NCBI GenBank assembly: GCA_001270045.2
Contig: DF970667.1
Span: forward strand, 271,975 to 335,974
Direction of reading: 5' to 3'
Length of the DNA stretch: 64,000 bases
DNA from: Bacteroidales bacterium 6E
GTDB taxonomy: Bacteria; Bacteroidota; Bacteroidia; Bacteroidales; Prolixibacteraceae
Made by a program: the position numbers and the translations under genes. The notes under the pieces were generated by a model. That model worked only from the letters and a program-made list of their open reading frames with translations. It was not told where the DNA came from and did no database searches. Positions 2 through 60,569 of the stretch are shown here, one piece after another (position 1 is the first letter of the stretch; the number at the start of each line of letters is the position of its first letter).

Positions 2-619
2 GGTATCGGTATTGGTTGGACAAGCGCCGAAAAGATCTATAATTCGCTGAACGGGGAATTAATTGACAAGCCCGGATTGATAGCCCTTTATGCGGCATTG
101 ATATCCATTGTCAGCAAGGAAGCCCTTTTCTGGTATACAAAGATAGAAGGGAAGAGGCTGAACAGCCAGGCCATGATCGCCAACGCATGGCACCATCGTT
201 CCGATGCCTTTTCGTCAATAGGAACCGCATTGGGCATATCGGGAGCCATCATGCTGGGCGAGAAATGGCGCATCCTCGACCCACTGGCAGGAGTCATCGT
301 CAGCTTCTTCATCCTGAAGGTGGCGTGGGACATTGCCAAGCCGAGCATCGATGAACTGCTTGACCGCTCTCTTCCCGAAAGCACCCAGAAGGAAATTGAA
401 CAAATCATCACCGATACGAATGGCGTCAAGAGTTTTCACGGACTGCGAACCCGCAAAATCGGCGACCATTACTCGGTCGAAATGCACATCCAGGTCGACC
501 GCCACCTGACGGTCGAGGTATCGCACCAAATGGCCACTGATATTGAGAACACCCTGCGGCGAAAATTTGGCGCCAATACACATGTGGTGGTGCACATTGA
601 GCCCTTTAAGGGTTCTTAG
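2..619 (+). CDS. Cation diffusion facilitator (CDF) metal transporter, 5'-truncated
   Basis: The reading frame is open from the first bases of the window, so the gene starts outside it. A TTG at 77 is not the start, because coding continues upstream (GIGIGWTSAEKIYNSLNGE). The visible part contains the end of the membrane domain with the HHRSDAFSS segment, whose His-x-x-x-Asp pair is the metal site of CDF transmembrane helix 5. A further hydrophobic helix follows. The last ~80 residues look like the cytoplasmic ferredoxin-like CDF C-terminal domain (VKSFHGLRTRKIGDHYSVEMH). CDF proteins export Zn2+, Co2+, Cd2+ or Fe2+ from the cytoplasm by proton exchange. The RND export genes just downstream support a role in metal resistance. 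The stop codon TAG (617-619) lies inside the first unit of a palindromic repeat array. Confidence 0.9.
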   Translation, partial: GIGIGWTSAEKIYNSLNGELIDKPGLIALYAALISIVSKEALFWYTKIEGKRLNSQAMIANAWHHRSDAFSSIGTALGISGAIMLGEKWRILDPLAGVIVSFFILKVAWDIAKPSIDELLDRSLPESTQKEIEQIITDTNGVKSFHGLRTRKIGDHYSVEMHIQVDRHLTVEVSHQMATDIENTLRRKFGANTHVVVHIEPFKGS

Positions 620-705
620 GATGACATCCTTTAAAATCGAAGAGGATGTCATCCTTTAAGATTATCGAGGATGACATCCTCTAAAATTAAAAGGGATGTC
701 ATCCT
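618..705. repeat. Palindromic 13-mer array, 4 units, 25-base period
   Basis: Four copies of the near-perfect palindrome AGGATGACATCCT lie at 618-630, 643-655, 668-680 and 693-705 (the last begins GGG). Their starts are exactly 25 bases apart. The central base alternates A, T, A, T, so neighbouring units are reverse complements and could pair as 13-bp stems with 12-base loops. The spacers are AT-rich (tttaaaatcgaag-like). The first unit overlaps the stop codon of the CDF gene. Related arrays occur at seven other places in the window. The placement suggests a role at mRNA 3' ends (termination or stabilisation), which is inference. Confidence 0.9.
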
Positions 706-752
706 CATTAAACGCAGGCCAAAAGCCCTGAACAACATAAAAAATATATGAC

Positions 753-760
753 TACCTTTG
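753..760 (+). promoter_or_regulatory. Possible Bacteroidota -7 promoter element (TACCTTTG)
   Basis: TACCTTTG matches the TAnnTTTG -7 element of Bacteroidota promoters and lies 23 bases before the ATG at 784 of the TolC-like gene. I see no convincing TTTG at the -33 position, so this is only a candidate for the promoter of the efflux operon. Confidence 0.35.
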
Positions 761-783
761 GTAGTTGTTCAACCATCCTAATC

Positions 784-2019
784 ATGAAAAAACCATTACT
801 GGCCTTGTTCCTGCTGGCAAATACGCTGCTGCAGGCACAGGACAAACCGCTCACCTTGCAGGAAGCTGTCAAATCAGGCATAAACCGTAATCCAGAGCTC
901 CGCGAGCTTTACTCCGTGCTCGACCAAAAGCGGAATGCCGCCCGACAGGAAACAGGCATTGCCGATCCCGAGGTCAGTTACTTCAGGGAAGGCATCTCCA
1001 ACGGCCCCGGCGACATCTTCGACGAACAGCGGGTCACGGTCTCCCAAACCATCGATTTTCCGCTCACCACGGCTTACCGGATAAAAGGGATCAGAGAGGA
1101 GGTCAGTGCCCTCGAAAACGAGCTGAAAGCCCGCGAGAAGATGGTCAGGGCCGAGATCAAAAGCAACTACGTGGAGGTGATCTATGCCCTCCGCCTGCAG
1201 CGGTCAAGGCAAAACCAGGTCAACATCCTCACCGACCTCCACAAGGCGGTGTCGACCAAGCTCGAACTGGGCATGGCCAGCGGTATCGACCTTGCCAGCG
1301 TGGAGCTACAGCTCCAGGAGGCCCTCAACGACCTCGACCAATCGGAATTCATTCTTCACAAGGCCAGGTATAACCTATTCTATGCCATGGGAATGCCTGT
1401 ACCCGAGCAGAAATATTCCATCACCTTCAGTGATTCACTCAGCGCTTCCGAAGTGGAGGTCGACCAGATCCTGACCCTGGCCCTGCTAGAGCAACAGCCC
1501 GAGTTCCAGTCGACCATCCATGAACTGCAGGCTGCCCGCCTTTTCCTGAAGGAAGCCAAAAGCAATGTCCTGCCCGACCTCAGGCTCAACCTCTATCGGC
1601 AGGACTATGGCTCGGGGTACGATTTCACCGGTTTTGAGGTGGGCGTGAGCATCCCCCTCTGGTATCCACTGGCCCACAAGGGGAAAATCAACGCTTCGAC
1701 GGCCAGGGTGGCAGAAGTAGGCTGGAAACAAGACCGGATCAGGCTTGAGCTGAAACGCGAACTCGAGCATGCATGGCACAACTACGACATCAGCCGCAAG
1801 ATCATCAACCGATACCGCGACACCATGAGAAGCCGCGCCACCGAACTCCAGAGGCTCAGTCTGCGTGCCTACCAGCTTGGCGAAATCGACCTTCTCATGC
1901 TTCTCAATGCCCGTCAGGTCTTCCTGAATGGCGAACAACACTACCTGGCCGCCATGCGCGACTACTATCTCCAGCTGATCGCCCTGGAGAGGTATCTGGG
2001 CCAGGACCTTGTACAATAA
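784..2019 (+). CDS. TolC-family outer membrane efflux channel of a metal RND system
   Basis: This 411-residue protein forms the outer-membrane channel of a three-part efflux pump. The start at 784 (MKKPLLALFLLANTLLQA) is chosen because it opens directly on a signal peptide. An ATG at 748 would add 12 residues ahead of it and lie upstream of a promoter-like element. The mature protein has two outer membrane efflux repeats rich in long amphipathic helices (for example NPELRELYSVLDQKRNAARQ). Motifs such as NVLPDLRLNLYRQDYG and the C-terminal GEIDLLMLLNARQ are typical of CusC/CzcC proteins. Only 17 bases separate it from the adaptor gene, so the three RND genes form an operon. Confidence 0.9.
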   Translation: MKKPLLALFLLANTLLQAQDKPLTLQEAVKSGINRNPELRELYSVLDQKRNAARQETGIADPEVSYFREGISNGPGDIFDEQRVTVSQTIDFPLTTAYRIKGIREEVSALENELKAREKMVRAEIKSNYVEVIYALRLQRSRQNQVNILTDLHKAVSTKLELGMASGIDLASVELQLQEALNDLDQSEFILHKARYNLFYAMGMPVPEQKYSITFSDSLSASEVEVDQILTLALLEQQPEFQSTIHELQAARLFLKEAKSNVLPDLRLNLYRQDYGSGYDFTGFEVGVSIPLWYPLAHKGKINASTARVAEVGWKQDRIRLELKRELEHAWHNYDISRKIINRYRDTMRSRATELQRLSLRAYQLGEIDLLMLLNARQVFLNGEQHYLAAMRDYYLQLIALERYLGQDLVQ

Positions 2020-2036
2020 CTTAAATCTCACACTAT

Positions 2037-3224
2037 ATGAAAACCAAATGGATCTTAGCTCTGATACTGGGCATATACGTCGCTTCCTGCGGCACGGGGC
2101 AAAAGTCAGAAATCCCCGCAGGAGAAGGCACAGGTGAACTTCCGCCCTCGCTGCGACAGGAATCACCCACGGGACAGATGGTGCAACTGACCGAAAAGCA
2201 AGGGGATGAACTGGCGATCGAAACCGTGATGATTCACGGCGCAAAGGCAAAATATACCCTCCAGGCGCCGGCGGTCACCTTTCCGGCACCGGCCCATTCG
2301 AGCCTGATCAGCACCCCCATCAACGGACAAATCAACCGCATTTTCAAATATGAAGGCAACATGGTACGGAAAGGCGACATTCTCTTCCAGATCCAGAGCA
2401 TCGAGTTCGGAAACCTGGTGTCGGACTACCTGCAGGCATACGCCGAGGAGCGGTTTCAGCGGAGTAAGCAGAAGAGGATCCAGCAGCTGGTTGAGGAAAC
2501 CATAAGCGCAGCCAGCGAACTCGAAAAGGCCGTATCGGAATACGAGCGGGCCTCGGCCATCCTCAGGGCTTCCTACTCAAGACTGAGGGCCATCGGCGTG
2601 TCGGACGAGGAGATCAGCCAGTTCACCAACGGGGAAACGATCACGCCCCTATTGAACGTACACGCCCCCATCAGTGGCATAGTGGAGACCGTCTTTGTGG
2701 AACTCGGGCAATCGGTGAACGCCCTTGAGGACCTCTCGAGATTGCTCGACAACAGCACGGTACTGATCAGGGGCTATGTTTCGCCCGACGACGCCCGGCA
2801 CATCCAGCGGGGCGATTCCGTGAAGGTATGGAACCAGGGACGGCAGTCGTTCCTCCCGGCCACCATCGAGTCGGTCAACCCGGGCATGGACCCCACCAAC
2901 CGGTCGGTCGTCGCCAACATCATTATCGAGACCGTCAACGGATGGCCCAAGCCTGGTGAAAACCTTCAGCTCGACGTCACCACCTCGGTCGAGGTCGACG
3001 TCATCACCATCCCGGTCGATGCCATTACCTACGACGGCAACCAGGCCGTGGTTTTCGTGAAAAAGGACCCACGGACCTACGAGAAGCGGAACGTCAACAT
3101 TGCCGAAATCCGCGACAGGCAGGTGACCGTGCAGGGAGGACTGGCCGAGGGAGAAGAGATTGCGGTATCGAAGGTATTCAGCCTGAAGGCCATTTCGAGG
3201 TACGATATCATGGCTGAAGAATAG
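2037..3224 (+). CDS. RND efflux periplasmic adaptor (membrane fusion) lipoprotein
   Basis: This 395-residue adaptor joins the inner-membrane pump to the outer-membrane channel. It starts with a lipoprotein signal, MKTKWILALILGIYVASC, with the lipidated Cys at 18. The order is the usual one: a barrel-sandwich half (NGQINRIFKYEGNMVRKGD), an alpha-helical hairpin (about residues 130-190), the second half (NVHAPISGIVETVFVELGQ), a beta-barrel (VLIRGYVSPDDA) and a membrane-proximal domain ending FSLKAISRYDIMAEE. It most resembles CusB/CzcB adaptors. I see no His- or Met-rich metal-binding extension. It ends 15 bases before the pump gene. Confidence 0.9.
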   Translation: MKTKWILALILGIYVASCGTGQKSEIPAGEGTGELPPSLRQESPTGQMVQLTEKQGDELAIETVMIHGAKAKYTLQAPAVTFPAPAHSSLISTPINGQINRIFKYEGNMVRKGDILFQIQSIEFGNLVSDYLQAYAEERFQRSKQKRIQQLVEETISAASELEKAVSEYERASAILRASYSRLRAIGVSDEEISQFTNGETITPLLNVHAPISGIVETVFVELGQSVNALEDLSRLLDNSTVLIRGYVSPDDARHIQRGDSVKVWNQGRQSFLPATIESVNPGMDPTNRSVVANIIIETVNGWPKPGENLQLDVTTSVEVDVITIPVDAITYDGNQAVVFVKKDPRTYEKRNVNIAEIRDRQVTVQGGLAEGEEIAVSKVFSLKAISRYDIMAEE

Positions 3225-3239
3225 ACTAAAACCGACATC

Positions 3240-6200
3240 ATGTTACAACAGATCATAACGTTCAGCGTTCGTCAGAAATTCGTGGCCCTGTCCCTGGTCG
3301 TCCTGATGGCCGTGGGAGGCTACTTCTCACTGATCGAACTGCCCATCAATTCACTGCCCGACGTGACACCCGTCCAGGTACTGGTGATCACCAAGGCCGG
3401 ACGCTACTCGCCCTTCGACGTCGAAAAGCTGGTGAGCTATCCGGTGGAAACCGCCATGAACGGACTTCCCGAGGTGGCACAGGTACGGTCGATCTCCCAG
3501 TTCGGGTTGTCGGCGGTCACCGTCGAGTTCAACGAAGGTACCGACATCTATTTTGCGCGACAACTGGTCAGCCAACGGCTGCAATCCATCACCAACGACC
3601 TCCCCGGCGATGTGTCGAGCCCCATGCTCGGTCCCATCTCCACCGCCCTGGGCGAAATCTACCAATACACCGTCAAGGGGGACGGTTATTCGCTCACCGA
3701 GCTGCGCGAGATCCAGGACTGGCTCATTGCACCGCAGCTGAAAACGGTGAAGGGTGTTACCGAGATCAACTCGTTCGGGGGATTCGTGAAGCAGTTTGAG
3801 GTGACGGTACTGCCCGAACAGCTCAACCTCTTCAATATCGGCATCTCCGATGTGATGGACGCCATCGCCAGCAATAACAGCGTGTCGGGGGGCAACTACC
3901 TCGAGCACAACGGCGAACAGTATATCGTAAGGGGGCTCGGACAAATCGGCAACATTGCCGACATCGAAAACATCATCGTCAAGAACGTCAATAATCGTCC
4001 TGTCTTTATCCGCGACATCGCCACCGTCAACACCGCCACCGAAATCAGGCAGGGCGGGGTCACACAGGACGGACAAGGCGAGGTGGTCACCGGTATCGTG
4101 ATGATGCTGCGTGGCGGTAACGGACGCATGGTCATCCAGAGTATCGAAGAGAAGATTGCCGCCATCAACGAAGGTCTGCCCGAGGGGGTTGTCATCGAGA
4201 AATTCTACGACCAATCCGACCTGATCAGCCGTACCACCCGTACTCTCTCGACCAACCTGGCAGAGGGTGGCATGCTGGTCATCGTGATCCTGCTTCTACT
4301 TTTGGGAGAAATTTCGGGCGCCCTCATCGTGGCCACCGTCATACCCTTCTCCATGCTGTTTGCCTTTATAGGTATGCGCGAGTTCGGGTTGGCAGCCAAC
4401 CTGATGAGTTTGGGTGCCATCGACTTCGGGATGGTCGTCGACGGCTCGGTAGTGATGGTAGAAAACATCGTCCACCGCCTCCAGAAGGACACTTCCAAAA
4501 ACAAGGGCGAAGTTATCCGCGAAGCAGCCATGCAGGTGGTACGCCCGATTTTTTTCGGGGTATTGATCATATTGATGGTTTATGTACCCATCATGACTTT
4601 TACCGGCATGGAAGGCATTCTCTACCGCCCCATGGCCATTACCGTGGCGGCAGCCGTGTTTGGCTCCCTTTTGCTGGCCCTTATCTATGTGCCGGCCATT
4701 TCCACCATCGTATTCCGGAAGGGCGTCAAGGTGCGCCGAAACTACCTCATCGAGTGGATCAAGCCCTTCTATGTCAGAAACCTGGCGGCATTCATGAACC
4801 GTAAGGCCTTCACAGTAAGTACCGCCATCGTCATCTTCGCCCTATCGCTTTGGGTGATGAGCAGGCTGGGAACCGAATTCCTGCCCGAGCTCGACGAAGG
4901 ATCTATCCTGATCGAACAGGTGCGGATGCCCTCGGTAACCCTCGACGAATCGATCGAAAATGCCAACTGGCTGGCCGCAAAGCTGATGGAAAACATCCCA
5001 GAAATCAGGACGGTGGTTCCCAAAACCGGGCGCTCCGACCTGGCCAACGACTGGATGGGAATCCACCAGACCGACGTATGGGTTGTGCTCAAGCCTGTGG
5101 ATGAGTGGCGCAAGGGACTTGAGAAGAGCGACATTGTGGCGATGATTGAACCTTATCTCCAGTCGGAGCCTGGACTGGTTTACAACTTCACACAGCCCAT
5201 CGCCATGCGCGTGGATGAATTAACCAGTGGCGTGAAGTCCGATCTGGCCATCAAGATTTACGGCGAGGACCTCGACGTTCTGGGGCAGATCGGAGAGAAC
5301 ATCTCGAAGCTGCTGCCCGGACTCGAGGGAACCGGCAATTTCTATGTCGAGCAGTCGGTGGGACAACCCTACCTGACCATTGAGATCGACAGGGCAGCCG
5401 TGGCTACATTCGGACTGAATGTAGATGATGTGCAGCACGTAATCGAGGCCGGTATCGGAGGGCAACAGGCGGGCATGTTATACGAGGGACAGCGAAGGTT
5501 CGGGATTACGGTGAGATACCCCAAAGAGATCCGCGACGAGCTATACAAGATACAGAATGTGCCCGTACACCTGCCCGGGGGAGGCACCATCCCGCTGAAG
5601 CGGGTGGCCCTGATCGAGCTGCAGGAAGGTCCGCGTGAGATTCAGCGCGAGAACGGCTGGCGCCGGCTGATCGTGGGGATCAATATCCGCGACATCGACC
5701 TGGGCACATATGCCGCCAAACTACAGGAAGTGGTGGCTACACAGGCCGAGATTCCCGCCGGATACTTTGTCGAATATGGCGGCACCTTCGAGAACCAGCA
5801 AAGGGCCATGCGGCACCTGCTATTGGTTGTTCCGCTGTCGATTTTTATCATTCTGGGGCTGCTCTACCTGAACTTCGGCAAGATGAAATATGCCATCCTG
5901 ATCCTGCTCAATCTGCCCTTTGCCCTGTCGGGAGGCGTCTTCCTGCTCTGGGTGCGGGGTATGTACCTCTCAGTATCGGCGAGCATCGGATTTGTGGCCC
6001 TGTTTGGGGTGGCAGTACTCAACGGATTGGTGCTGATCGACCACATCAACGAACTTCGGAAAACCAAGGAAGGCAAGCTCAGGGACCTGATCGTGGAAGG
6101 GTCGGCCGACAGGCTGCGGCCTGTACTCATGACCGCCCTGGTGGCCAGTCTGGGCTTTATCCCGATGGCCTTCAATACCGGTCCGGGTTCCGAGGTGCAG

Positions 6201-6320
6201 CGCCCCCTCGCCACGGTAGTGATCGGCGGCTTGATCACCTCCACATTCCTGACATTGCTGGTACTGCCGATAGTTTATCATTGGATGGAAAAGAAAAGCA
6301 AAAAGGATGTCATTCTTTAA
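3240..6320 (+). CDS. Heavy-metal RND efflux pump, CzcA/CusA family
   Basis: This 1026-residue, 12-helix inner-membrane pump drives metal ions out by proton antiport. It has the family's full length, with the N-terminal helix (MLQQIITFSVRQKF), two large periplasmic loops and the family motif SYPVETAMNGLPEV. The helix-4 motif DFGMVVDGSVVMVEN fits, from memory, the DFG-x3-DG-x4-EN pattern of the Zn/Co/Cd/Ni branch better than the Cu/Ag branch. The CDF gene upstream agrees with that. The last codons (KKDVIL, stop 6318-6320) lie inside a 13-base palindrome at 6304-6316. The end of the protein may therefore have been written by a repeat insertion. Confidence 0.93.
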   Translation: MLQQIITFSVRQKFVALSLVVLMAVGGYFSLIELPINSLPDVTPVQVLVITKAGRYSPFDVEKLVSYPVETAMNGLPEVAQVRSISQFGLSAVTVEFNEGTDIYFARQLVSQRLQSITNDLPGDVSSPMLGPISTALGEIYQYTVKGDGYSLTELREIQDWLIAPQLKTVKGVTEINSFGGFVKQFEVTVLPEQLNLFNIGISDVMDAIASNNSVSGGNYLEHNGEQYIVRGLGQIGNIADIENIIVKNVNNRPVFIRDIATVNTATEIRQGGVTQDGQGEVVTGIVMMLRGGNGRMVIQSIEEKIAAINEGLPEGVVIEKFYDQSDLISRTTRTLSTNLAEGGMLVIVILLLLLGEISGALIVATVIPFSMLFAFIGMREFGLAANLMSLGAIDFGMVVDGSVVMVENIVHRLQKDTSKNKGEVIREAAMQVVRPIFFGVLIILMVYVPIMTFTGMEGILYRPMAITVAAAVFGSLLLALIYVPAISTIVFRKGVKVRRNYLIEWIKPFYVRNLAAFMNRKAFTVSTAIVIFALSLWVMSRLGTEFLPELDEGSILIEQVRMPSVTLDESIENANWLAAKLMENIPEIRTVVPKTGRSDLANDWMGIHQTDVWVVLKPVDEWRKGLEKSDIVAMIEPYLQSEPGLVYNFTQPIAMRVDELTSGVKSDLAIKIYGEDLDVLGQIGENISKLLPGLEGTGNFYVEQSVGQPYLTIEIDRAAVATFGLNVDDVQHVIEAGIGGQQAGMLYEGQRRFGITVRYPKEIRDELYKIQNVPVHLPGGGTIPLKRVALIELQEGPREIQRENGWRRLIVGINIRDIDLGTYAAKLQEVVATQAEIPAGYFVEYGGTFENQQRAMRHLLLVVPLSIFIILGLLYLNFGKMKYAILILLNLPFALSGGVFLLWVRGMYLSVSASIGFVALFGVAVLNGLVLIDHINELRKTKEGKLRDLIVEGSADRLRPVLMTALVASLGFIPMAFNTGPGSEVQRPLATVVIGGLITSTFLTLLVLPIVYHWMEKKSKKDVIL

Positions 6321-6364
6321 AATTGAAGAGGATGACATCCTCAGATTTGGGAGGATGTCATCCT
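6304..6364. repeat. Palindromic 13-mer array, 3 units
   Basis: Units lie at 6304-6316 (AGGATGTCATTCT), 6329-6341 (AGGATGACATCCT) and 6352-6364 (AGGATGTCATCCT), with start spacings of 25 and 23 bases. The central base alternates T, A, T. The first unit overlaps the last codons of the RND pump gene. The spacer after the first unit (ttaaaattgaag) matches the spacer in the 618-705 array, so the whole 25-base unit is repeated and not only the palindrome. Confidence 0.9.
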
Positions 6365-6370
6365 TTGCGC

Positions 6371-6484
6371 AGGTCCTTCTTCCGAGATGCGGAATCAGGA
6401 TGACAGCGACGGCTATATATAAATAATTATTGGGCAGGAGGAGGTCCTTCTGATGCTGCGCATCCTCAGGATGACAGCGACGGC
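6371..6484. repeat. Pair of 43-base imperfect direct repeats
   Basis: Two 43-base blocks at 6371-6413 and 6442-6484 share identical ends: AGGTCCTTCT at the left and an 18-base right end beginning CAGGATGACAGCG. The middle 15 bases differ completely. The right end resembles, from memory, a very common bacterial intergenic repeat containing CTCAGGATGACA. No gene is present here. Confidence 0.8.
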
Positions 6485-8417: not shown

Positions 8418-8423
8418 ACAAAA

Positions 8424-28823: not shown

Positions 28824-28941
28824 GTTGACTAAATTGAAGGTAATTTTCCTCATTTAATTATGATTTCCTGTCTGACTATTGCTGATTCTTTCTTTGCATT
28901 CCATACTTTTACCCCTTATGACTAATAGACGATTGCAATAC

Positions 28942-29727
28942 ATGAAAATCCTTTTCCTGACCATTACAGCCTCTCTTCTGATCGCGTTGGGGGCCACAGC
29001 CCAGCGCATCGAAGACCCGGTGTCTCATATCGACTGGAAAAAGGTGGTGTTAGCCAACAATGCCGAATTCAATGCCGGGAAACTGGACTGGGGATCCGGC
29101 TTTTTGATACGATTCAATAACGACACGATTGCCATCACGGCCAGAGATTTTACCGGCACTACATACACCCGCGGAGAGATGCTGCTAGTCAAAGACTTCG
29201 CCCGGGAAATGAAATACTGGAACATGTACATCCCCGACCAGCCATCGCAGTATGTTGCTCTCGATACGCTGGTCATGCCCGAACGCATCGAGCGAAAGGT
29301 CTCCATCCTTATGTTCTCCGCCAATTACCTCTCATTTTCACTGAAGCACAAGAATCCCAATATCATCCCGCTTGAGCCCGACACCAGGAAGATCCCCAAC
29401 CGCGATACAGTATTCATCGTGGGGTACGACCGTGACCATAACCTTCGGATTGTAGAAGGATTCGTTGAATTGGTGCCAAACGAGAAATATGCCGAATTGG
29501 AAATCAGGATCCGGACCAATGTCTACCTTGGCGATCCCGGATTTGCAGGTGCCCCAATCGTCGACAGGCAAGGAAAGGCCATCGGGCTCACCAACCGGTC
29601 GTATTACCTCTACAAGAACAAAAAGGGAAGAATCATCAGCGACAAGAAGCCCGTCGAAGGCGGCTATTACGAATTCTTCGTGAATGGCACTACCATGCGA
29701 AGTGTGCTGGGCAAAGGCGATAAATAA
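28942..29727 (+). CDS. Secreted trypsin-fold protein, catalytic residues apparently missing
   Basis: This 261-residue protein starts with a Sec signal (MKILFLTITASLLIALGATA), which is why 28942 is used over the longer frame from 28879. It shows the outline of a chymotrypsin-like protease: GSGFLIRF (51-58), a following strand AITARDF where the catalytic His is expected, and GDPGFAGAPIVDRQGKAIGL (197-216) where the family has GNSGGP. The active-site Ser position is Ala202, and no His is near residue 68. It is probably a non-catalytic binding or scaffold protein. Two more envelope proteins follow, suggesting a shared function. Confidence 0.65.
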   Translation: MKILFLTITASLLIALGATAQRIEDPVSHIDWKKVVLANNAEFNAGKLDWGSGFLIRFNNDTIAITARDFTGTTYTRGEMLLVKDFAREMKYWNMYIPDQPSQYVALDTLVMPERIERKVSILMFSANYLSFSLKHKNPNIIPLEPDTRKIPNRDTVFIVGYDRDHNLRIVEGFVELVPNEKYAELEIRIRTNVYLGDPGFAGAPIVDRQGKAIGLTNRSYYLYKNKKGRIISDKKPVEGGYYEFFVNGTTMRSVLGKGDK

Positions 29728-29762: not shown

Positions 29763-29811
29763 AGGATGACATCTTTTCGTTGCATTCGTCTTCGGAAAAA
29801 GATGTCATCCT
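29763..29811. repeat. Palindromic 13-mer pair, 36-base spacing
   Basis: AGGATGACATCTT (29763-29775) and AAGATGTCATCCT (29799-29811) are exact reverse complements of each other. The spacer between them (ttcgttgcattcgtcttcgga) is nearly the one found at 60500-60521. The pair follows the stop codon at 29727 by 36 bases. Confidence 0.85.
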
Positions 29812-31194: not shown

Positions 31195-31932
31195 ATGAAA
31201 AAGATATCCATCACCATACTGGCAATTATCTTAGCAGCAGCAGGTTTCGCCCAAATCACCGGGGAAAATAAACCCGACACTATGGGGAAGGAAACCCTGA
31301 CACTCATTGGTAAACGGAAGTCCAGCGGATTTTACGGCACCATGCAAATCAACCTGCTCATGGGGAACCACCAGTATGCGGAACGCTTCGTGCCTTATAA
31401 AGGGTATTCCTTATCATCGTCGATGCTCCCGGGCTATATTGTTCCGTCTGTCAATACCCGCTTTTCGGTCAGCCCTTCCTTCATGTTGAGCGGCGGCTTC
31501 CGTTTTAATAAACATTGGGCTGCAGGAGCCGGAGCGGGAATCGAGATTTTCGACCATAACCTTTACCCACTGTTTGCCGAACTGAAGTATACCTTCTGGG
31601 ACAACAGGATCTCGCCCTATGTGGCCTTGAAAGGTGGATATGCCTTCAAAGATTTCAAGGCGAAGTATCATGAAGAGCTTTGGCTGAACTGGCAGCCCTA
31701 CTACCTCAGCGATGCCACCCTGCGCAATTTCGGAGGGATGATGCTCCATCCCGAAATTGGGGTAAAAGTGCCCTTATACGACTACTGCGACCTGCTGTTT
31801 TCGGCAGCCTACCGCTACCAGGAAAAGAAATCAGTGGCCCGAAGGGAGCTCCCATCCAACCAGTACGACGAATGGGAACACATTGAAAAACTCAATAAGC
31901 TTTCCTTTGGGGTGGCTATCATGTTCAGGTAA
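31195..31932 (+). CDS. Small outer membrane beta-barrel protein, function unknown
   Basis: This 245-residue protein has a Sec signal (MKKISITILAIILAAAGFAQ) and alternating amphipathic strands rich in Tyr, Phe and Gly (for example NKHWAAGAGAGIEIF and YVALKGGYAFKDF). It ends in a strand closing with aromatic-basic residues (FGVAIMFR), as expected of an outer-membrane barrel of about 8-10 strands. I cannot place it in a named family. Its stop codon TAA (31930-31932) overlaps the first unit of a palindromic repeat array. Confidence 0.65.
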   Translation: MKKISITILAIILAAAGFAQITGENKPDTMGKETLTLIGKRKSSGFYGTMQINLLMGNHQYAERFVPYKGYSLSSSMLPGYIVPSVNTRFSVSPSFMLSGGFRFNKHWAAGAGAGIEIFDHNLYPLFAELKYTFWDNRISPYVALKGGYAFKDFKAKYHEELWLNWQPYYLSDATLRNFGGMMLHPEIGVKVPLYDYCDLLFSAAYRYQEKKSVARRELPSNQYDEWEHIEKLNKLSFGVAIMFR

Positions 31933-32002
31933 GATGACATCTTTTTGTTGCAAAAAGATGTCATCTTTTCGTTGCATTCATCTACCTAAAAGATGACATC
32001 TC
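31931..32002. repeat. Palindromic 13-mer array, 3 units
   Basis: Units lie at 31931-31943 (AAGATGACATCTT), 31955-31967 (AAGATGTCATCTT) and 31990-32002 (AAGATGACATCTC), with start spacings of 24 and 35 bases. A half unit (cgacatctt) follows near 32009. The first unit begins inside the stop codon of the barrel gene. The rest of the gap up to 32167 shows no gene or clear promoter. Confidence 0.88.
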
Positions 32003-32167: not shown

Positions 32168-34399
32168 ATGAAACAAATAATTCCTGCATTTTTGCTTGCA
32201 CTGCTGACGGGCTGTTCGCAACCGAATGGGCTGATTATGGAAACGGCCTCAACCATGGCCATCACTGCTACCGATACCCGCGATTCCATCCTGTTGAAGG
32301 CGGCGCATGTGGTTCCGACCCCCAACCAGCTGGAGGCGCTCAAACGTGAATTCATCGCTTTTGTCCACTTTGGACCCAATACCTTTACCCGGATGGAATG
32401 GGGAACAGGCATGGAAGACCCCGCGATTTTCGACCTCAGGGAATTGGATACCGACCAATGGTGCGAGGCCATGAAGGCTGCCGGAATGAAAAAAGTCATT
32501 TTTACGGCCAAGCACCACGACGGGTTCTGCCTGTGGCAAAGCCGCTATACCGATCATGGCATCATGTCGACACCTTTCAGGGACGGCCAGGGCGATGTCA
32601 TGAAGGATCTCTCGGAATCATGCGAAAAGTACGGACTGAAGCTGGGTGTCTACCTCTCCCCTGCCGACTTGTTCCAGATCGAGAATCCCGAAGGATTGTA
32701 CGGCAACCTGAGCCAGAAGACAGAGCGGATCATCCCCCGACCGGTTGAAGGTCGTCCGTTTGCGAACAAAACCACGTTTACTTTCACTGTCGACGATTAC
32801 AACGAATATTTCCTGAACCAGCTGTTTGAGCTGCTCACCGAGTATGGCCCGGTGCACGAAGTCTGGTTCGACGGGGCCCATCCAAAACGTAAGGGCGGAC
32901 AAACCTACGACTACGAAGCCTGGAAGGAGCTGATCCATACGCTGGCGCCTGAAGCCGTCATTTTTGGCCGTGAGGATATCCGCTGGTGCGGAAACGAGGC
33001 CGGACGGACCCGCGATACAGAGTGGAACGTCATACCGTATACCTCACATCCCGACACGGGATCGCCTTCGGTGAACATGCAGGCCGAGATATTGGGAAGC
33101 ATTGACCAGTTGTCCGAAGCCAAATTCCTGCATTACATGCCCGCCGAAACCAATACCTCCATCCGTGAAAGCTGGTTCTATCGCGACGACTCCACCCAGA
33201 AGGTGCGCAGCGCCGACGATGTGTTCGACATTTACGAACGGACGGTTGGTGGTAACTCCATCTTCCTGCTCAACATCCCGCCAAATCGCGAAGGCCGCTT
33301 TTCCGTCGAGGATGTCATGGTCCTGGAGGAGGTCGGGAAACGCATCGGCGAAACATATGGCACCAATCTACTGAAAGGGGCAAAAGGCCCCCGCAAGGTA
33401 CTTGATGATAATACTGACACCCATGAATTGCTTACAGGTGAGGACCAGTCCATTGAAATCACCCTGGGCTCTGAGGTGGAAGCCAACCGCTTTGTCATAC
33501 AGGAAGCCATAGCCACCCACAGTGAACGTATCGAAAAACATGCGTTGGATGCCTGGATCGATAACCAGTGGCAGGAGGTCGTAACAGCCACAAATGTGGG
33601 ATATAAGCGGATCTTGCGTTTCCCTACCGTGACCACGTCAAAATTCAGGCTACGGATTTTGGAATCGCGCATGGCACCGGCCATAGCCACCGTTTCGGCC
33701 CATTATTACGAGAACCGTCCACCGCAACTGGCTTTAGCGCGCAGCATTGAAGGCATGCTGACCATTGAGCCGAAAAAGCATGATTTCGGCTGGAAATCGC
33801 ACGGCGTGGATGTTTCCGGGAATCTCAACAAAGACCTCGAAATTCGTTATTCGCTGGATGGAAGTGAACCATCCCAGACTTCAAGCTTGTATTCAGGTCC
33901 TTTCCTGCATGAATCCGGTCAGGTAAAAGCCCGTTCGTTTACCAGGGGACTGTCGGGCAGCATTGCCGAGAAGGTCTTCGGCATGGTCAAAAAAGACTGG
34001 AACCTGATGGGTGCCGACCGCGAAGGGGAAGGGCATGGCGGAACGATGGCTTTCGACGAGAACCCAAAAACCTATTGGCTTTCCAAAGGAAATGGCCCTC
34101 ACTACCTTTCTGTCGATCTGGGACAGAGTGCCAGTCTCAAGGGATTTGTCTATACACCACCCACTGCCCATGCGGAAGGCTTGATTGAGGAAGGGGTGAT
34201 CAAGACCAGTGCCGACGGCAGGAATTGGGAAACCCTGGAGTCATTCAGGTTCGGGAACCTGATCAATGATCCCACCCCCCGGACCCATTATTTCAGCGCG
34301 CCTGCAAAGGCCCGTTTCATCCGTGTCGAATCGCGCGTCATCGCCGGTGGCATGTCGGGCGCCGCCATCGCCGAAATTGACTTCCTGACCGAAAGATGA
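32168..34399 (+). CDS. GH29 alpha-L-fucosidase lipoprotein with C-terminal discoidin domain
   Basis: This 743-residue enzyme cleaves terminal alpha-L-fucose. A lipoprotein signal (MKQIIPAFLLALLTGC, Cys16) suggests it is held on the cell envelope. The GH29 barrel is clear: FVHFGPNTFTRMEWG, VIFTAKHHDGFCLWQS and the nucleophile motif HEVWFDGAHP with Asp235. After the catalytic part there is a chitobiase-like beta domain (SLDGSEPSQTSSLYSG) and a C-terminal F5/8 type C (CBM32-like) domain (DGRNWETLESF, RFIRVESRVIAGGMSG). The stop codon lies inside a degenerate palindromic repeat. The GH123-type gene follows on the same strand. Confidence 0.92.
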   Translation: MKQIIPAFLLALLTGCSQPNGLIMETASTMAITATDTRDSILLKAAHVVPTPNQLEALKREFIAFVHFGPNTFTRMEWGTGMEDPAIFDLRELDTDQWCEAMKAAGMKKVIFTAKHHDGFCLWQSRYTDHGIMSTPFRDGQGDVMKDLSESCEKYGLKLGVYLSPADLFQIENPEGLYGNLSQKTERIIPRPVEGRPFANKTTFTFTVDDYNEYFLNQLFELLTEYGPVHEVWFDGAHPKRKGGQTYDYEAWKELIHTLAPEAVIFGREDIRWCGNEAGRTRDTEWNVIPYTSHPDTGSPSVNMQAEILGSIDQLSEAKFLHYMPAETNTSIRESWFYRDDSTQKVRSADDVFDIYERTVGGNSIFLLNIPPNREGRFSVEDVMVLEEVGKRIGETYGTNLLKGAKGPRKVLDDNTDTHELLTGEDQSIEITLGSEVEANRFVIQEAIATHSERIEKHALDAWIDNQWQEVVTATNVGYKRILRFPTVTTSKFRLRILESRMAPAIATVSAHYYENRPPQLALARSIEGMLTIEPKKHDFGWKSHGVDVSGNLNKDLEIRYSLDGSEPSQTSSLYSGPFLHESGQVKARSFTRGLSGSIAEKVFGMVKKDWNLMGADREGEGHGGTMAFDENPKTYWLSKGNGPHYLSVDLGQSASLKGFVYTPPTAHAEGLIEEGVIKTSADGRNWETLESFRFGNLINDPTPRTHYFSAPAKARFIRVESRVIAGGMSGAAIAEIDFLTER

Positions 34400-34582
34400 C
34401 CTCTTCTTCGGAAAAAAGATGACATCTTCTCGATGCAAAGGATGATGTCTTTTCGTTGACAGACTCATTGGAAAAGATTTCATCCTTTTTTAAATTTATT
34501 CGTAATTTTAACTCACTGCCCCGCATCCACGATCCATATCGTGAGCTATGTGAGGCACCATGAAACGTGAGGATGTAATCCT
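34393..34582. repeat. Degenerate palindromic 13-mer array plus one separate unit
   Basis: Recognisable units are 34393-34405 (AAGATGACCTCTT), 34416-34428 (AAGATGACATCTT), 34439-34451 (AGGATGATGTCTT) and 34474-34486 (AAGATTTCATCCT). The last two are 35 bases apart and the spacer again contains ttcgttg. A further unit, AGGATGTAATCCT, stands alone at 34570-34582. It lies between an in-frame ATG at 34560 and the true start of the next gene. The first unit covers the stop codon of the fucosidase gene. Confidence 0.75.
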
Positions 34583-38371: not shown

Positions 38372-38960
38372 CGCTTCTCTGTTTTTTCAGGTTTGGTAAC
38401 TTGGTTTATGTATTTAAAACTGCAGAAATCCTCAATTATTGTCATTTAAGGCATGATTTATTGCTCCTGTAGGGAGGATGACATCCTTCGTGTAGCGAAT
38501 CGGGATGTCAGGCAAGCAGAAAAAGGTGCGGGGAACCGTGATGCGCGTTACGGGGTCCTGCGGTGGACGGCTTCGCCATAAAATGAATGATTGTATGAAC
38601 TGACAGCAATCAAAACCCTGTAAGGGTTCGTTTCGATCCCGGACGCGCCAGCGAGCGGGAGGCACAATTGTAAACGAAGGCATCCCCCAAACACCACCCT
38701 CAGAGGTTTTGCAATTGCCGCCCCGAAAGCCTTCGAGGGGCAACCTGCAAAACTAATTTGTGGAATGCAGGAAAGGGCATGCCCTTTCCCTACAATCCAT
38801 TTTCCAATGGATGACTATGGCCATCTGTGATATCCATTATGAACAAGCCCGCAGGCAAATCCGTGTAAATTTGTGTAAATCCGTGGGCAACCCAGGCATG
38901 CCGTAAGGCGTGCCTCTAATCCATCTGTGTTAATCTGTGGCACCTGTGGTGCAACCGGTT
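38372..38960. other. 589-base gene-free gap carrying dispersed repeats
   Basis: I see no gene here; short open frames are made of repeat sequence. From left to right the gap holds a single palindromic 13-mer (38475-38487, AGGATGACATCCT), a G-rich stretch near 38525, and a ~200-base dispersed element (38614-38813). It also holds a hairpin AGGCATGCC-gtaa-GGCGTGCCT (38894-38915). Between about 38866 and 38945 are several copies of an aatccgtgtaaat / atctgtgttaatctgtgg phrase, which is common between genes in many bacteria. Confidence 0.8.
38614..38813. repeat. Dispersed intergenic element, copy 1 (most complete)
   Basis: The first 48 bases (38614-38661) are identical to 63944-63991. They start AACCCTGTAAGGGTT, itself an inverted repeat, and end GCGAGCGGGAG. 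The remaining ~153 bases (38661-38813) match 40660-40811, including an identical 46-base core at 38715-38760. The core is followed by a perfect 20-base palindrome, GGAAAGGGCATGCCCTTTCC (38770-38789). No open frame is conserved among the copies, so it is a non-coding, possibly mobilisable element. Confidence 0.85.
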
Positions 38961-40589: not shown

Positions 40590-40637
40590 AGGATGACATC
40601 TTTTCGTTGAAGTCGTCAACGGGAAAGATGTCATCCT
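40590..40637. repeat. Palindromic 13-mer pair, 35-base spacing
   Basis: AGGATGACATCTT (40590-40602) and AAGATGTCATCCT (40625-40637) are exact reverse complements 35 bases apart. The spacer ttcgttgaagtcgtcaacggg is related to the one at 29776-29798. Confidence 0.85.
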
Positions 40638-53365: not shown

Positions 53366-53403
53366 CAAAAAATAACTCCCGGCCATTTTATGCACCGGGA
53401 GTT
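53366..53403 (-). terminator. Rho-independent terminator of SusC/SusD set 3
   Basis: On the minus strand AACTCCCGG pairs with CCGGGAGTT (53403-53374, 9 bp, 12-base loop), followed by ATTTTTTG. It starts 14 bases after the SusD stop codon. This is the clearest classical terminator in the window. Confidence 0.85.
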
Positions 53404-53417
53404 AAACCATTTATCTA

Positions 53418-55085: not shown

Positions 55086-55115
55086 AATGCTTAAATTTTT
55101 CACGATGAATAATCA

Positions 55116-58100: not shown

Positions 58101-58409
58101 TCCTTCAAACAACAAGCTCAATACCTCCTCAATCGATTTCCCCGAAATTGAGATATTGACCCTCCTGTTGAGATCAACGTGCTGGTCCTGGTAGAAAAAT
58201 ATAAATTCACTCTGATCCTCAATAGCCGTCATCACTTCCTTCACCGTGGCATTATTCATCTCAAGCTTTAACCTGACGTTTTGTGAATAGGTGTTCGAAC
58301 TGAAAGCCACCGCCGAACCAATCAAGAGAAAGAGAAGAGTCAGTCGCATAACAAGCAATGTTTTACGGAGATACATGTAGGTATCCCCTGAAAGTTGTTT
58401 TTTTTTCAT
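55116..58409 (-). CDS. SusC/RagA-type TonB-dependent transporter (set 3)
   Basis: This 1097-residue transporter starts at 58409 (MKKKQLSGDTYMYLRKTLL); the longer frame reads through an AT-rich leader and is unlikely. After a signal (LTLLFLLIGSAVAFSSNTYS) comes an STN domain (ATVKEVMTAIEDQSEFIFFY). A carboxypeptidase-regulatory-like domain follows (NQPMPGVAVIVKGTTIGTV). The plug carries SIEILKDASAAAIYGSRGSN, and the barrel ends REFVFGLNLGF. As in the other sets, the STN domain indicates signalling through the FecR protein encoded upstream. Confidence 0.95.
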   Translation of the reverse strand: MKKKQLSGDTYMYLRKTLLVMRLTLLFLLIGSAVAFSSNTYSQNVRLKLEMNNATVKEVMTAIEDQSEFIFFYQDQHVDLNRRVNISISGKSIEEVLSLLFEGTDNSYTVRDRQIVIAKSPEIEPIKPSVTEEKSVVEMQQPQRKEVSGLVRDSKNQPMPGVAVIVKGTTIGTVTDNSGRFRLEVPVDAATLEVSFVGMKKQELPIEGRSTFEVVLEEESFGVDEVIVVGYGTQKKSDITGTVASLNKERLEMVPNLNIAQAIQGSVPGIMIQQSSSGASPSESIMIRGRNSILADNTPLIVMDGIPYGGAIRDINPNDVQSIEILKDASAAAIYGSRGSNGVILITTKAGTNLAPKISYDGYYSVQNYANYPEYLDGAEFYDFKMKRFAGAMTASEKRIYESGEWVDWTKLGTRTGNGQQHSLSVSGGFNNTSYYIAGNLLDVKGLMLNDDYQRVTGRINVDTKIAGWFTLGTRTQLSFDDRSGSGPDLSYLSRMNPLTRAFEEDGSQVIYIWEEDTYFWNPLQPLLFDNIDESYQVVTNNYAIVDFPFLQGLSYRINSGVRARFSDTATYMGRDTKDGLEARGSAQTNRSQNSNVVIENILTYNRDFGAHNIFLTGLYSYEKNKSTANSLTAKGFPHDFLKWYSAAQAELVTPGFSFTENVLMSQMLRLNYGYDSRYLVTLTGRRDGFSGFGADTKWGIFPSIALGWNIAREDFFPLADIVNDLKLRLSYGLNGNQAVGSYESISRLSEYNMVANKQTQAGYIPSRLGQENLGWESSKTLNAGMDFALLESRITGDLNIYRTNTYDLLLNRSISPVHGITSITQNIGETQNSGVEVSINSRNIVKNDFRWNTSVNFSFGQNKIVSLYGELDEQGNEIDDVANAWFIGKPIRVNYDFLWEGTWQESEAEAAAKWGSQPGFMKLQDVNTDGKLDAIDRQIIGQEDPKVLWGLTNSFSYGNFKLDIFVHGVHGVTKENPLMSDYVWADVRLNTIKKNWWTPENPTNEWIVNHLNAEWMAGIQGVMYENASFVRVKDISLSYDLPQTMLDNLKLDRLRLYVTGRNLMTFTEWRGLDPELSSQRQAPLQREFVFGLNLGF

Positions 58410-58451
58410 AGTTTTGTTTGATTTTTTTATTAATGTATTTAATTGAAAATC

Positions 58452-58485
58452 AAACCGGGGTCTGTTTGGTCGCACATCCCGGTTT
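58452..58485 (-). other. FecR-SusC intergenic hairpin (set 3)
   Basis: On the minus strand AAACCGGG-atgtgcgaccaaacagac-CCCGGTTT forms an 8-bp stem in the 114-base gap between FecR and SusC. Its place matches the hairpins of sets 1 and 2, and the loop again contains GTG and ACCA. Confidence 0.55.
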
Positions 58486-58523
58486 CTTTATTTCCATGCG
58501 CTTAGGTCTGAATCATAGGCACG

Positions 58524-59699
58524 TCATTTTATGTTATACAATCCATTTTCAATCTGATCATATTTGATCGATGCCGAAAACGAAATTCTTTCCAAAACCT
58601 CATTTATGTTTTCAGCCAGATCAAGTTTCCCCGAGAATGTAATTTGTTTCAATTCCCTTTCAGTCACGATTTTCACGTCGTAATATCTTTCCAATTGCCT
58701 GAAAATTTCCAGGATAGGCTTCTGGTCAAAAATCAGGTAACCCTCAACCCACGAGGTGTATAGGTTTATATCGACACGTTCCTTGGTGAAACGTTCATTC
58801 GTTCGGTCAAACACGATTCGCTCGCCTGGCAGCAATTCGATCCCCTTCGAAAATCTCGCATTGCTCTGGACGCTAACGCTTCCCGCAACCAGTACTGTCT
58901 GTGTCTGTTGATCGTCTTTGTACGATTTCACGTTGAAGCGCGTCCCGAAAACCTTGACACGCATATCGGTGGTGATGACATTAAAAGGTCTTTGCGGATC
59001 GGTTTTGACGTCAAAAAATGCCTCACCCGTAAGCTGGACTTCCCTTGTGTGCCCGTCCATTTTTTCGGGATACAACAACATACTGCCCGAGTTTAACCAT
59101 ATTCGGGTACCATCGGCCAGTTCTATTTGCATGCGCTTGCCATAAGGAACAATCACCTGGGTTACACCCTGGTTCTTTCTGCCCGCCTTTTTATTTTCTA
59201 AAGTAATGGCTTCATCATTGACCAGAGTCTCACCGGTTGGGGTCTGTTTAATGGTGGCCTCTTCCTGGTCAAGCATTTTCACGGTCCCGTCCGACAGGAT
59301 GACCTTTCCCACTTCCTCCGTGGCATCATATGGAATTTCGAGGTCCACACCCTGATCCATGCCCATAAAGTAATAGGCCAATCCTCCCAGCGAGATTACC
59401 AGCAAAAGAACTGCCGCTGCCTTTATAAAACCAAACATTGCCCGGCGTTTAGCCGATTGCCTGATCTTGTCGGGCGACATCCGGTCCAACTGTTCACGGG
59501 TGATGGAAGGCTCCAGTGGGGTGAAACATTTCAGGATGGTTTTCGCCTCCATAATCTGGTCCCCTTTTTCCGGATGGCTGTCCATGAATTCCTTCCAGAA
59601 CCGTTCAAGTTCATCGTCAGGGTGGAATATCCATCTTGAAAAGGATGGATCAAGCGCGAAATCCTCGGTTGTAAAATCTATATAGTGTTTAAAATCCAT
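58524..59699 (-). CDS. FecR-family anti-sigma factor (set 3)
   Basis: This ~391-residue anti-sigma factor has one transmembrane helix (FIKAAAVLLLVISLGGLAYY, about residues 90-110). Its FecR domain (LADGTRIWLNSGSMLLYPEK, GEAFFDVKTDPQRPF, VFGTRFNVKSY) and DUF4974-like end (KPILEIFRQLERYYDVKIV) follow. It differs from the other two in a longer linker that carries a second short motif, VILSDGTVKMLDQEEATIK. The start at 59699 (MDFKHYIDF) is preferred over 59723. It sits 50 bases after the sigma gene. Confidence 0.92.
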   Translation of the reverse strand: MDFKHYIDFTTEDFALDPSFSRWIFHPDDELERFWKEFMDSHPEKGDQIMEAKTILKCFTPLEPSITREQLDRMSPDKIRQSAKRRAMFGFIKAAAVLLLVISLGGLAYYFMGMDQGVDLEIPYDATEEVGKVILSDGTVKMLDQEEATIKQTPTGETLVNDEAITLENKKAGRKNQGVTQVIVPYGKRMQIELADGTRIWLNSGSMLLYPEKMDGHTREVQLTGEAFFDVKTDPQRPFNVITTDMRVKVFGTRFNVKSYKDDQQTQTVLVAGSVSVQSNARFSKGIELLPGERIVFDRTNERFTKERVDINLYTSWVEGYLIFDQKPILEIFRQLERYYDVKIVTERELKQITFSGKLDLAENINEVLERISFSASIKYDQIENGLYNIK

Positions 59700-59749
59700 G
59701 TGCTCCTTTTTAGTAATAAGCACACCGAAATGAAAACATCATCAAAATT

Positions 59750-60364
59750 TCAGATGTTTTTTATCATGAATCTCAAAAAAAGTAGGATGGAGTCGGATTT
59801 GTTTGATTTCAGGATAATTTTCAACGATTTGATGGCGGTATAAATCAGGTTTCGGCAGGCTTCAACACTGATGTTCATAATATCCGCAATCTCTTCGTAT
59901 GCCAGGTCTTTGGCGAACCTGAGATAAATCGCTTCCTTTTGGCGGTTTGTCAGGCTCTTCAGTGCATTTCTGACCATGGCAAGCTTCTCCGACTCGATCT
60001 CATCCACAATGATGTCATGTTCGATTGAAAAAGTCATGTTGAATGCCATTTCCCCGGGGTCGCCGGTAGCATCATGGTGCTTGTCTTTCTGCAGCCGTTT
60101 CAGTAGAATTCTCTTGAATGATTTCAGCAGGTAGAAAAGGATGTTGTCGGTATTGCCCAGATTGTGCCGGAGCTTGATCAGGGTGGAAAACAAATCCTGA
60201 ATGGAATCTTCTATAACGGTCACGTCCGACGTAAACTTTACACCGTATTGATAGAGCTTGGGGGCATACTCTTCGTAAATGAATGATAATGAACGATCAT
60301 CGCCCATTCTAAACGATGACCAAATATCCATATCATTCGTTTCCGGTTTAGCCATGTAATACAA
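59750..60364 (-). CDS. ECF RNA polymerase sigma factor (set 3)
   Basis: This ~204-residue sigma factor is divergent from the other two. Region 2 is LYQYGVKFTSDVTVIEDSI and region 4 has the helix-turn-helix IADIMNISVEACRNLIYTAI. The start may be 60364 or 60355. The promoter at 60381-60412 leaves a leader of about 10 to 19 bases, which favours 60355. It should activate SusC/SusD set 3. Confidence 0.92.
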   Translation of the reverse strand: MYYMAKPETNDMDIWSSFRMGDDRSLSFIYEEYAPKLYQYGVKFTSDVTVIEDSIQDLFSTLIKLRHNLGNTDNILFYLLKSFKRILLKRLQKDKHHDATGDPGEMAFNMTFSIEHDIIVDEIESEKLAMVRNALKSLTNRQKEAIYLRFAKDLAYEEIADIMNISVEACRNLIYTAIKSLKIILKSNKSDSILLFLRFMIKNI

Positions 60365-60380
60365 CCATTCAAATCGCTAA

Positions 60381-60412
60381 CAATTTTACGAATTCAGTAC
60401 GTGAAAAGCAAA
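60381..60412 (-). promoter_or_regulatory. Bacteroidota promoter for ECF sigma set 3
   Basis: On the minus strand TTTG (60412-60409) is followed after 20 bases by TAAAATTG (60388-60381), one mismatch from TAnnTTTG. Transcription would begin near 60374, just ahead of the sigma factor start. Confidence 0.55.
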
Positions 60413-60486
60413 CAATCCTTTTGGGGAGGGAAAAAAGGTGCGAGGCCCACGAAAGCTTTCGGGGCGGGGTGCGGGTTGCGGCAGGT

Positions 60487-60569
60487 AAGATGTCATCTTC
60501 TCGTTGCATCTGTCTTCGGAAAAGATGTCATCTTCTCGTTGCATCTGTCATCGGAAAAGATGACATCTT
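60487..60569. repeat. Palindromic 13-mer array, 3 units, 35-base period
   Basis: Units lie at 60487-60499, 60522-60534 (both AAGATGTCATCTT) and 60557-60569 (AAGATGACATCTT), starting exactly 35 bases apart. The two spacers differ by one base and contain ctcgttgcatctgtc. The third unit runs into the stop codon (minus strand, 60569-60571) of the GH92 gene, so again the array begins at a gene's 3' end. Confidence 0.92.

What the first reader, a model, noticed from the sequence alone, without database searches (positions are those of the whole stretch)
618..60569. Palindromic 13-mer arrays with fixed 25- or 35-base periods, scattered between genes
The unit AGGATGACATCCT / AAGATGACATCTT (and complements) occurs in arrays at 618, 6304, 29763, 31931, 34393, 40590 and 60487, plus a single copy at 38475. 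Two sub-families have different spacers: an AT-rich one with a 25-base period and a 'ttcgttgcat..gtcttcgg' one with a 35-base period. In most arrays neighbouring units alternate in orientation (central A then T), so each pair forms a 13-bp hairpin. I know of no described family with this sequence. It may be a REP-like element, a terminator cassette or binding sites for a dimeric protein.
Basis: partly seen in the sequence, partly recalled or inferred. Interest (0 to 1): 0.75.

Follow-up and report, generated by a model that had tools for sequence, protein, structure and literature searches.

The report
REP-like hairpin arrays at gene ends
This Bacteroidota genome carries a few hundred copies of a short near-palindrome, arranged so that neighbouring copies fold into long hairpins just after genes; it looks like an undescribed family of the common REP-type gene-end repeats, probably a transcript-end hairpin, and not a new kind of system.

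Summary
GATGWCATC occurs 18 times in the window against 0.8 expected and 324 times in the genome; it is the commonest of 512 odd 9-base palindrome classes in a 756-kb sample. The units form arrays of 2 to 14. Periods are not strictly 25 and 35: they cluster at 18, 23-27 and 34-38. Nor is simple alternation the rule: the outermost units are complementary in 53 of 59 arrays, A-type first in 48, so arrays fold into long stems (40 of 42 strand folds with z below -2). The stem pairs next to the core change on both sides together. 17 of 20 arrays lie within 60 nt of an ORF 3' end (5.6 expected); an 18th follows a tRNA gene. In Prolixibacteraceae relatives the stem has the anatomy of a bidirectional intrinsic terminator; in this genome the T-tail is short. 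Best reading: an undescribed REP-like family of gene-end hairpins, spread by copying and tandem duplication. It is not filed under GTAG or CGTC REPs, whose defining features failed. Binding sites of a dimeric protein are not supported.

The parts
618..705 (.). array of 4 units (A,T,A,T; period 25) directly after the stop codon of ORF 77-619 (cation efflux family)
   Evidence: fold z -10.1
6304..6364 (.). array of 3 units (T with one mismatch, A, T; spacing 25, 23) overlapping the 3' end of ORF 3240-6320 (AcrB-type pump); last codons and stop lie in the repeat
29763..29811 (.). 2-unit hairpin (A..T, spacing 36, common CGTTGCATTCGTCTTCGG loop) after ORF 28879-29727
31931..32002 (.). 3-unit array (A,T,A; spacing 24, 35) abutting the stop codon of ORF 31195-31932
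34393..34487 (.). array of one exact and three altered units, overlapping the stop codon of ORF 32168-34399; folds better than shuffles only when the altered units are included (z -3.6 and -4.3)
38475..38487 (.). single unit AGGATGACATCCT, small hairpin (z -2.1), in a stretch of other short repeats
40590..40637 (.). 2-unit hairpin (A..T, spacing 35); not close to an ORF 3' end by the ORF rule used (327 nt)
60487..60569 (.). 3-unit array (T,T,A; spacing 35, 35) abutting the stop codon of the minus-strand ORF 60569-63706

Best explanation
A lineage-specific family of REP-like extragenic palindromes. The working unit is a hairpin made by two copies of a 9-base near-palindrome (GATGACATC and its complement GATGTCATC) plus about two more pairs outside and two to four inside. 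Because the unit is nearly its own complement, any copy can pair with any other, and arrays grow by tandem duplication and still fold, often as nested stems. Shown here: the arrays, their predicted folding, matched changes next to the core, the 3'-end position, copies with a shared loop on many contigs, and differences between two species at matching places. Inferred: that the hairpin acts in the transcript as a 3'-end signal. In relatives with A/T tails it should work as a bidirectional intrinsic terminator; in this genome, with short T-tails, it more probably protects 3' ends or terminates weakly. How copies move is not known.
For: Position: 17 of 20 intergenic arrays within 60 nt of an ORF 3' end, 14 within 20 nt; 2000 random intergenic placements gave 5.6 and 2.2 on average, at most 13 and 8. 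One of the other three starts 15 nt after the end of a tRNA-Ser gene. Folding: 40 of 42 strand folds z below -2, mean -6.4; 11 of 60 control 3' flanks drawn from 234. Complementary ends: 53 of 59 arrays and 28 of 30 loci of relatives. Matched changes at pairs not used for selection: first outer pair G-C 41, A-U 10, unpaired 0 of 51; first inner pair U-A 36, C-G 11, U-G 1, unpaired 2 of 50; relatives likewise. A C:G version of the centre exists. Terminator anatomy in relatives: T 0.47-0.93 at positions 2-9 outward, about 0.3 further out. Spread: the common loop recurs in hairpins from 27 sources, the window and 26 fetched stretches. Between G000 and G135: kept at C7:150181, 14 exact units against 4 at C5:39315, no exact unit in G000 at two matching places.
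Against: In the window's genome T-tails are short: T 0.85, 0.47, 0.69, 0.34 at positions 2-5, then background, so ordinary intrinsic termination is doubtful here. A-first arrays outnumber T-first 48 to 5 though both fold alike, which points to founder copies and not to function. Covariation is limited to the pairs next to the core: pairs further out are often unpaired (16 and 29 of 51) and one inner pair is unpaired in 24 of 51; the number of pairs with two-sided change (6) and of pair types (17) equal the shuffles (379 and 304 of 500 reach them), while 16 of the 47 two-sided cells sit at the centre pair, which the selection required to match. No transcript data.
Confidence: 0.62

Rival explanations
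1. Binding sites for a dimeric double-strand DNA-binding protein (nucleoid or chromosome-organising factor, or regulator): each 9-bp pseudo-palindrome binds one dimer.
For: The 9-base core is a near-perfect dyad and letters beside it vary; 25 and 35 spacings differ by about one helical turn.
Against: A dyad site has no need for complementary ends, yet 53 of 59 arrays have them; 18-nt arrays do not share the helical phase of 25 and 35; lone units are few (15 singles in 756 kb, against about 9 by scaling 0.77 per 64 kb); the centre also occurs as C:G in matched pairs. The exact core is partly a product of the search.
Confidence: 0.1
2. A mobile REP family moved by the genome's tyrosine transposase (RAYT), as in REPtrons.
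For: G000 has one Y1_Tnp gene, flanked by arrays of another, GTAG-containing hairpin (30 core matches upstream, 4 downstream); at C9:12.5-13.8 kb such hairpins and the C:G version of this one alternate in a tandem.
Against: No GATGWCATC within the 3.3-kb locus of that gene nor in five of the other nine Y1_Tnp loci of the genus, the five that I scanned; G137, G138 and G139 have Y1_Tnp matches and no arrays, G135 has arrays and no match, though it is only 66% complete.
Confidence: 0.1
3. Inert selfish or slippage-generated repeats that pile up at gene ends only because nothing is disrupted there.
For: Exact tandem steps (three of 27 nt at C1:410942; 14 units at C5:39315); copy number differs strongly within the genus; A-first bias.
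Against: Matched changes next to the core; 3'-end hugging beyond random intergenic placement; an array kept in both species at one place, 60 of 63 letters, in surroundings about 83% identical.
Confidence: 0.13
4. A DNA uptake signal that also serves as terminator stem, as in Neisseria and Pasteurellaceae.
For: Same geometry: complementary close copies of a short fixed motif form terminators, with a bias for one configuration (PMC1852404, passages only).
Against: 324 copies in 4.4 Mb, where that paper gives generally 1000 or more; 57 of 75 copies in 756 kb lie between ORFs; the motif is palindromic, and pairs are absent from five of seven genomes of the genus.
Confidence: 0.03

Closest known systems
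Repetitive extragenic palindromes in general (REP/BIME)
   Same: short palindromes, over 100 copies, extragenic, close to 3' ends, sometimes supplying stop codons, paired or clustered units that fold into larger hairpins (PMC3733652, passages only)
   Different: the unit is itself nearly self-complementary with a swappable centre; no conserved unpaired tag; arrays up to 14 units with several spacer classes
CGTC/TGTC-tagged REPs (Di Nocera et al. 2013, PMC3733652, passages and outline only)
   Same: TGTC followed by a stem that starts with AT occurs in each A/T unit (TGTCATC); 3'-end position; no linked transposase
   Different: TGTC is inside the paired stem and is lost in the C:G version; loops mostly longer than 4-5 nt; no CCA tail; clusters common instead of rare
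Intrinsic terminators, incl. uptake-signal terminators of Neisseria and Haemophilus (PMC1852404, passages only)
   Same: shared stem sequence in many 3'-end hairpins; A/T tails in relatives such as Draconibacterium, Maribellus and Prolixibacter
   Different: short T-tail in the window's genome; tandem arrays
TGTCATCCTGAGTGAAACGAAGGACCTC repeats in the same genome
   Same: share TGTCATCCT, and GAGGTCCT with one spacer type
   Different: different stem and loop; no such near-palindromic units

Membership tests
Repetitive extragenic palindrome (untagged REP-like) | many copies, extragenic, palindromic, folds | tested here: met
Repetitive extragenic palindrome (untagged REP-like) | located next to gene 3' ends | tested here: met
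   17 of 20 within 60 nt
CGTC-tagged REP | terminal unpaired CGTC/TGTC/CCTC tag | tested here: not met
   TGTC lies within the stem; absent from GATGCCATC/GATGGCATC hairpins
CGTC-tagged REP | stem 8-9 bp, loop 4-5 nt, CCA tail, clusters rare | tested here: not met
   longer stems and, in the 25- and 35-nt types, longer loops; 29 of 59 arrays have 3 or more units
CGTC-tagged REP | stem starts with complementary AT | tested here: met
   ATC..GAT in all 51 aligned (fixed by the search)
CGTC-tagged REP | no transposase linked | tested here: met
   (six of ten Y1_Tnp loci of the genus looked at)
GTAG REP / REPtron | GTAG tag and linkage to a RAYT gene | tested here: not met
   no GTAG tag on the element; RAYT locus has other repeats
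Intrinsic terminator (relatives) | hairpin at gene end followed by T-rich tail | tested here: met
Intrinsic terminator (window's genome) | hairpin at gene end followed by T-rich tail | tested here: inconclusive
   hairpin met; T excess only at positions 2-5
Intrinsic terminator | RNA 3' ends at the element | not testable with these tools
   no transcript data
DNA uptake signal | about 1000 or more copies, also within genes | tested here: not met
   324 copies; 18 of 75 overlap ORFs in 756 kb
Rfam families | match at gathering score | tested here: not met
   0 matches in the window

The most novel reading that the evidence does not exclude
The 9-base core is a recognition signal shared across Bacteroidota lineages (Prolixibacteraceae, Carboxylicivirga of the Marinilabiliaceae, and Chryseosolibacter of the Cytophagales): a protein reads the near-palindromic hairpin, as a transcript-end factor or as a DNA signal, so that terminators in these lineages carry an address and not only a shape. 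Few lineages show it (3 of 392 genomes of a phylum sample with the stricter pattern, own genome included and one of them another repeat), which would make it a clade-specific termination or uptake code.
Probability: 0.07. Interest if true: 0.7.

Novelty: new member of a known kind. Interest (0 to 1): 0.33.

Why it matters
It adds what looks like an undescribed REP-like family in Prolixibacteraceae and shows one stem sequence in two states: single hairpins with terminator tails in relatives and amplified arrays in this genus. That makes a concrete case for how terminator hairpins can turn into dispersed repeats, or the reverse. It also shows stop codons and last codons supplied by a repeat, and that ORF rules can place small ORFs over such arrays.

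Tried and rejected
Literature: no paper with GATGACATC plus Bacteroidetes or with GGATGWCATCC in a relevant setting (4 and 9 papers listed, titles and abstract starts only); none for the GAGCTTGTCGAAGGA repeat; nothing that ties Prolixibacteraceae to palindromic repeats in the 8 listed of 41 papers. One search listed PMC3733652 and the RepRanger paper PMC12306157 (abstract and outline only); two searches listed PMC3733652 and PMC6006769 (listing only); one search listed PMC1852404. Other papers may describe the family; most subscription journals are not held.

Rfam: no match in the window. RAYT as mover: unsupported. DNA uptake signal: rejected on copy number and place. CRISPR: no tool was run; the repeated part is short and the 35-nt spacers recur.

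Ortholog comparison with same-genus genomes by two window proteins: the 743-aa protein had no close match (best 44%); the pump had one at 92% in G139, whose locus holds no unit, but the DNA beyond the gene is unrelated, so this is not an exact empty site. Six G135 loci were compared with the stretches held of G000: besides the three cases told, L224 meets DNA of like length and low similarity, perhaps a decayed copy; L220 meets a shorter, poorly alignable stretch; L219 meets a rearranged place without units; L225 had no clear partner.

Rows dropped before counts: in the 756-kb sample 23 multi-unit clusters (units with up to one mismatch), of which 2 in coding DNA with a mismatched partner (132777, 159383) were left out as chance; 357229 lies at the start of a longest-rule ORF and was folded (21 arrays) but not position-tested (20 arrays). 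For the alignment 61 hairpins of spacing 34-37 with complementary centres were found and 51 aligned; of the 10 left out 7 had an ambiguous orientation by my rule and 3 an unrelated loop. The 134 relative pairs were chosen for complementary centres, those also for AGG..CCT flanks. Of the 59 arrays of exact units, 19 lie in the 756 kb; the others come from stretches chosen because they hold arrays. The ORF caller is a longest-ORF rule, not a gene finder.
Full report
What was checked. The unit GATGWCATC lies at all the stated places; 18 exact copies in 64 kb against 0.77 expected by shuffling. The window is C2:271975-335974 of a 4.44-Mb genome, G000. Genome-wide there are 156 + 168 copies of GATGACATC on the two strands and 74 of GGATGWCATCC, with none for the reversed control. 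In 756 kb (C1:1-420000, C2:1-335974) GATGWCATC is the most frequent of all 512 classes of odd 9-base palindromes, 75 against 44 for the next; 57 of the 75 lie between ORFs.

Who it is. The array at G135:C73:168259, with its flanks, is letter for letter that of a record titled Prolixibacteraceae bacterium UBA5740 (L097 and L222), and contig lengths tie other family members to Draconibacterium, Maribellus and Prolixibacter; the first two are Prolixibacteraceae in the NCBI taxonomy. So the window belongs to a genus of Prolixibacteraceae (Bacteroidota). Close pairs of units occur in 36 of 140 genomes of the family, own genome included, with no control hit in any; within the genus G000 has 99 pairs, G135 9, and the five others none. 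In a phylum sample a stricter pattern hit 3 of 392 genomes, own included, and one of these (G375) is a different repeat.

Anatomy. In 59 arrays of exact units in G000 the unit number is 2 in 30, 3 in 14, 4 in 10, 5 in 2, 6 in 2 and 14 in 1; the 119 spacings cluster at 18 (17), 23-27 (21) and 34-38 (77), with 4 at 19-21. Genome-wide, close pairs (not only adjacent ones) are A..T 67, T..A 16 and same-way 44. The outermost units are complementary in 53 of 59 (binomial p 9e-11), so arrays such as AATT fold as nested stems. 40 of 42 strand folds of 21 arrays have z below -2, mean -6.4, against 11 of 60 control gene ends drawn from 234; the array that failed, at window 34393, folds once its altered units are included (z -3.6 and -4.3).

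Folding is under some constraint. In 51 aligned hairpins, most with the common loop, the first outer pair is G-C in 41 and A-U in 10 with none unpaired, and the first inner pair U-A in 36, C-G in 11, U-G in 1 with 2 unpaired; 47 cells change on both sides against 16.8 in shuffles. Of these 47, 16 are at the centre (A-U 35, C-G 9, U-A 7), where complementarity was a condition of selection. Against: pairs further out are often unpaired, one inner pair is unpaired in 24 of 51, and the counts of two-sided pairs and of pair types do not exceed the shuffles. In relatives the pairs next to the core are also better matched than shuffles.

Place. Of 20 intergenic arrays in the 756 kb, 17 are within 60 nt and 14 within 20 nt of an ORF 3' end (expected 5.6 and 2.2); the others are the one counted as divergent (C1:304627), which starts 15 nt after a tRNA-Ser gene, C1:356578 (169 nt) and C2:312566, window 40592 (327 nt). 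In the window five arrays abut or overlap a stop codon (ORFs 77-619, 3240-6320, 31195-31932, 32168-34399, 60569-63706). The pump gene 3240-6320 ends within the repeat, while its 92% identical relative in G139 ends otherwise and its locus holds no unit.

Relatives show the terminator form. 28 of 30 relative loci have complementary pairs, a good part of them with AAAAGG..CCTTTT-like flanks. Read outward, T makes up 0.47-0.93 of positions 2-9 and about 0.3 beyond (29 loci, both ends); in G000 the T excess is confined to positions 2-5 (118 ends). So the same stem looks like a fair bidirectional intrinsic terminator in relatives and a doubtful one here.

Origin. Hairpins from 27 sources share the loop, and a four-unit 18-nt array recurs at C7 twice, at C22 in longer form, and in part at C6. 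Between G000 and G135 one array is kept in place (60 of 63 letters; surroundings 83%); one has 14 exact units in G000 and 4 in G135; at two further places G135 has an array and G000 no exact unit, one of them possibly holding a decayed copy. This is the behaviour of REP-like repeats. The genome's only Y1_Tnp gene sits among arrays of another hairpin, AACCCCGTAGGGGTGACACGATTGT, and not among these units; at C9 such hairpins and a C:G version of this one alternate in one tandem, the only hint of a link.

Classification. It works like a REP/BIME and, in relatives, like an intrinsic terminator. It is not filed under the GTAG or CGTC super-families of Di Nocera and others, since tag, loop, tail and clustering tests fail, though TGTCAT within the unit and the 3'-end place recall CGTC/TGTC repeats (passages only). 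That paper itself expects further untagged families. Novelty is therefore that of a new family of a known kind.

Noticed in passing
L031:1-3345 (G000:C10:34678-38022): The only Y1_Tnp (RAYT-like) gene found in the genome lies among tandem copies (25/27-nt steps) of AACCCCGTAGGGGTGACACGATTGT, about 30 core matches before and 4 after it: it looks like a REPtron with GTAG-containing hairpins in a Bacteroidota.
   Followed up: partly
L238:2080-3290 (G000:C9): About 160-nt higher-order tandem in which a C:G-centred version of the hairpin (GATGCCATC..GATGGCATC) alternates with GTAG/GTAA-containing hairpins.
   Followed up: partly
L226:2316-2787 (G000:C5:39315-39786): A 14-unit array with composite steps; the matching place of G135 has 4 exact units.
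   Followed up: partly
window 6395-6475 and elsewhere in G000: TGTCATCCTGAGTGAAACGAAGGACCTC-type repeats adjoin the 6304 array; 22 matches of TGTCATCCTGA in 756 kb, not all of them this repeat. They share GAGGTCCT with one spacer type.
   Followed up: partly
window 38614-38661 and 63944-63991: Two identical 48-nt copies 25 kb apart, and 108-nt copies (81%) at 38686 and 40683, near the single unit and the 40590 array.
   Followed up: no
L079 and L136: Tandem arrays AGGATGTCATCCTGAGCTTGTCGA (24-nt period) in other genomes also create AGGATGTCATCCT at each junction.
   Followed up: no
L238:941-1033: SAM-I/IV riboswitch match (51.3 bits, gathering 41.1).
   Followed up: no
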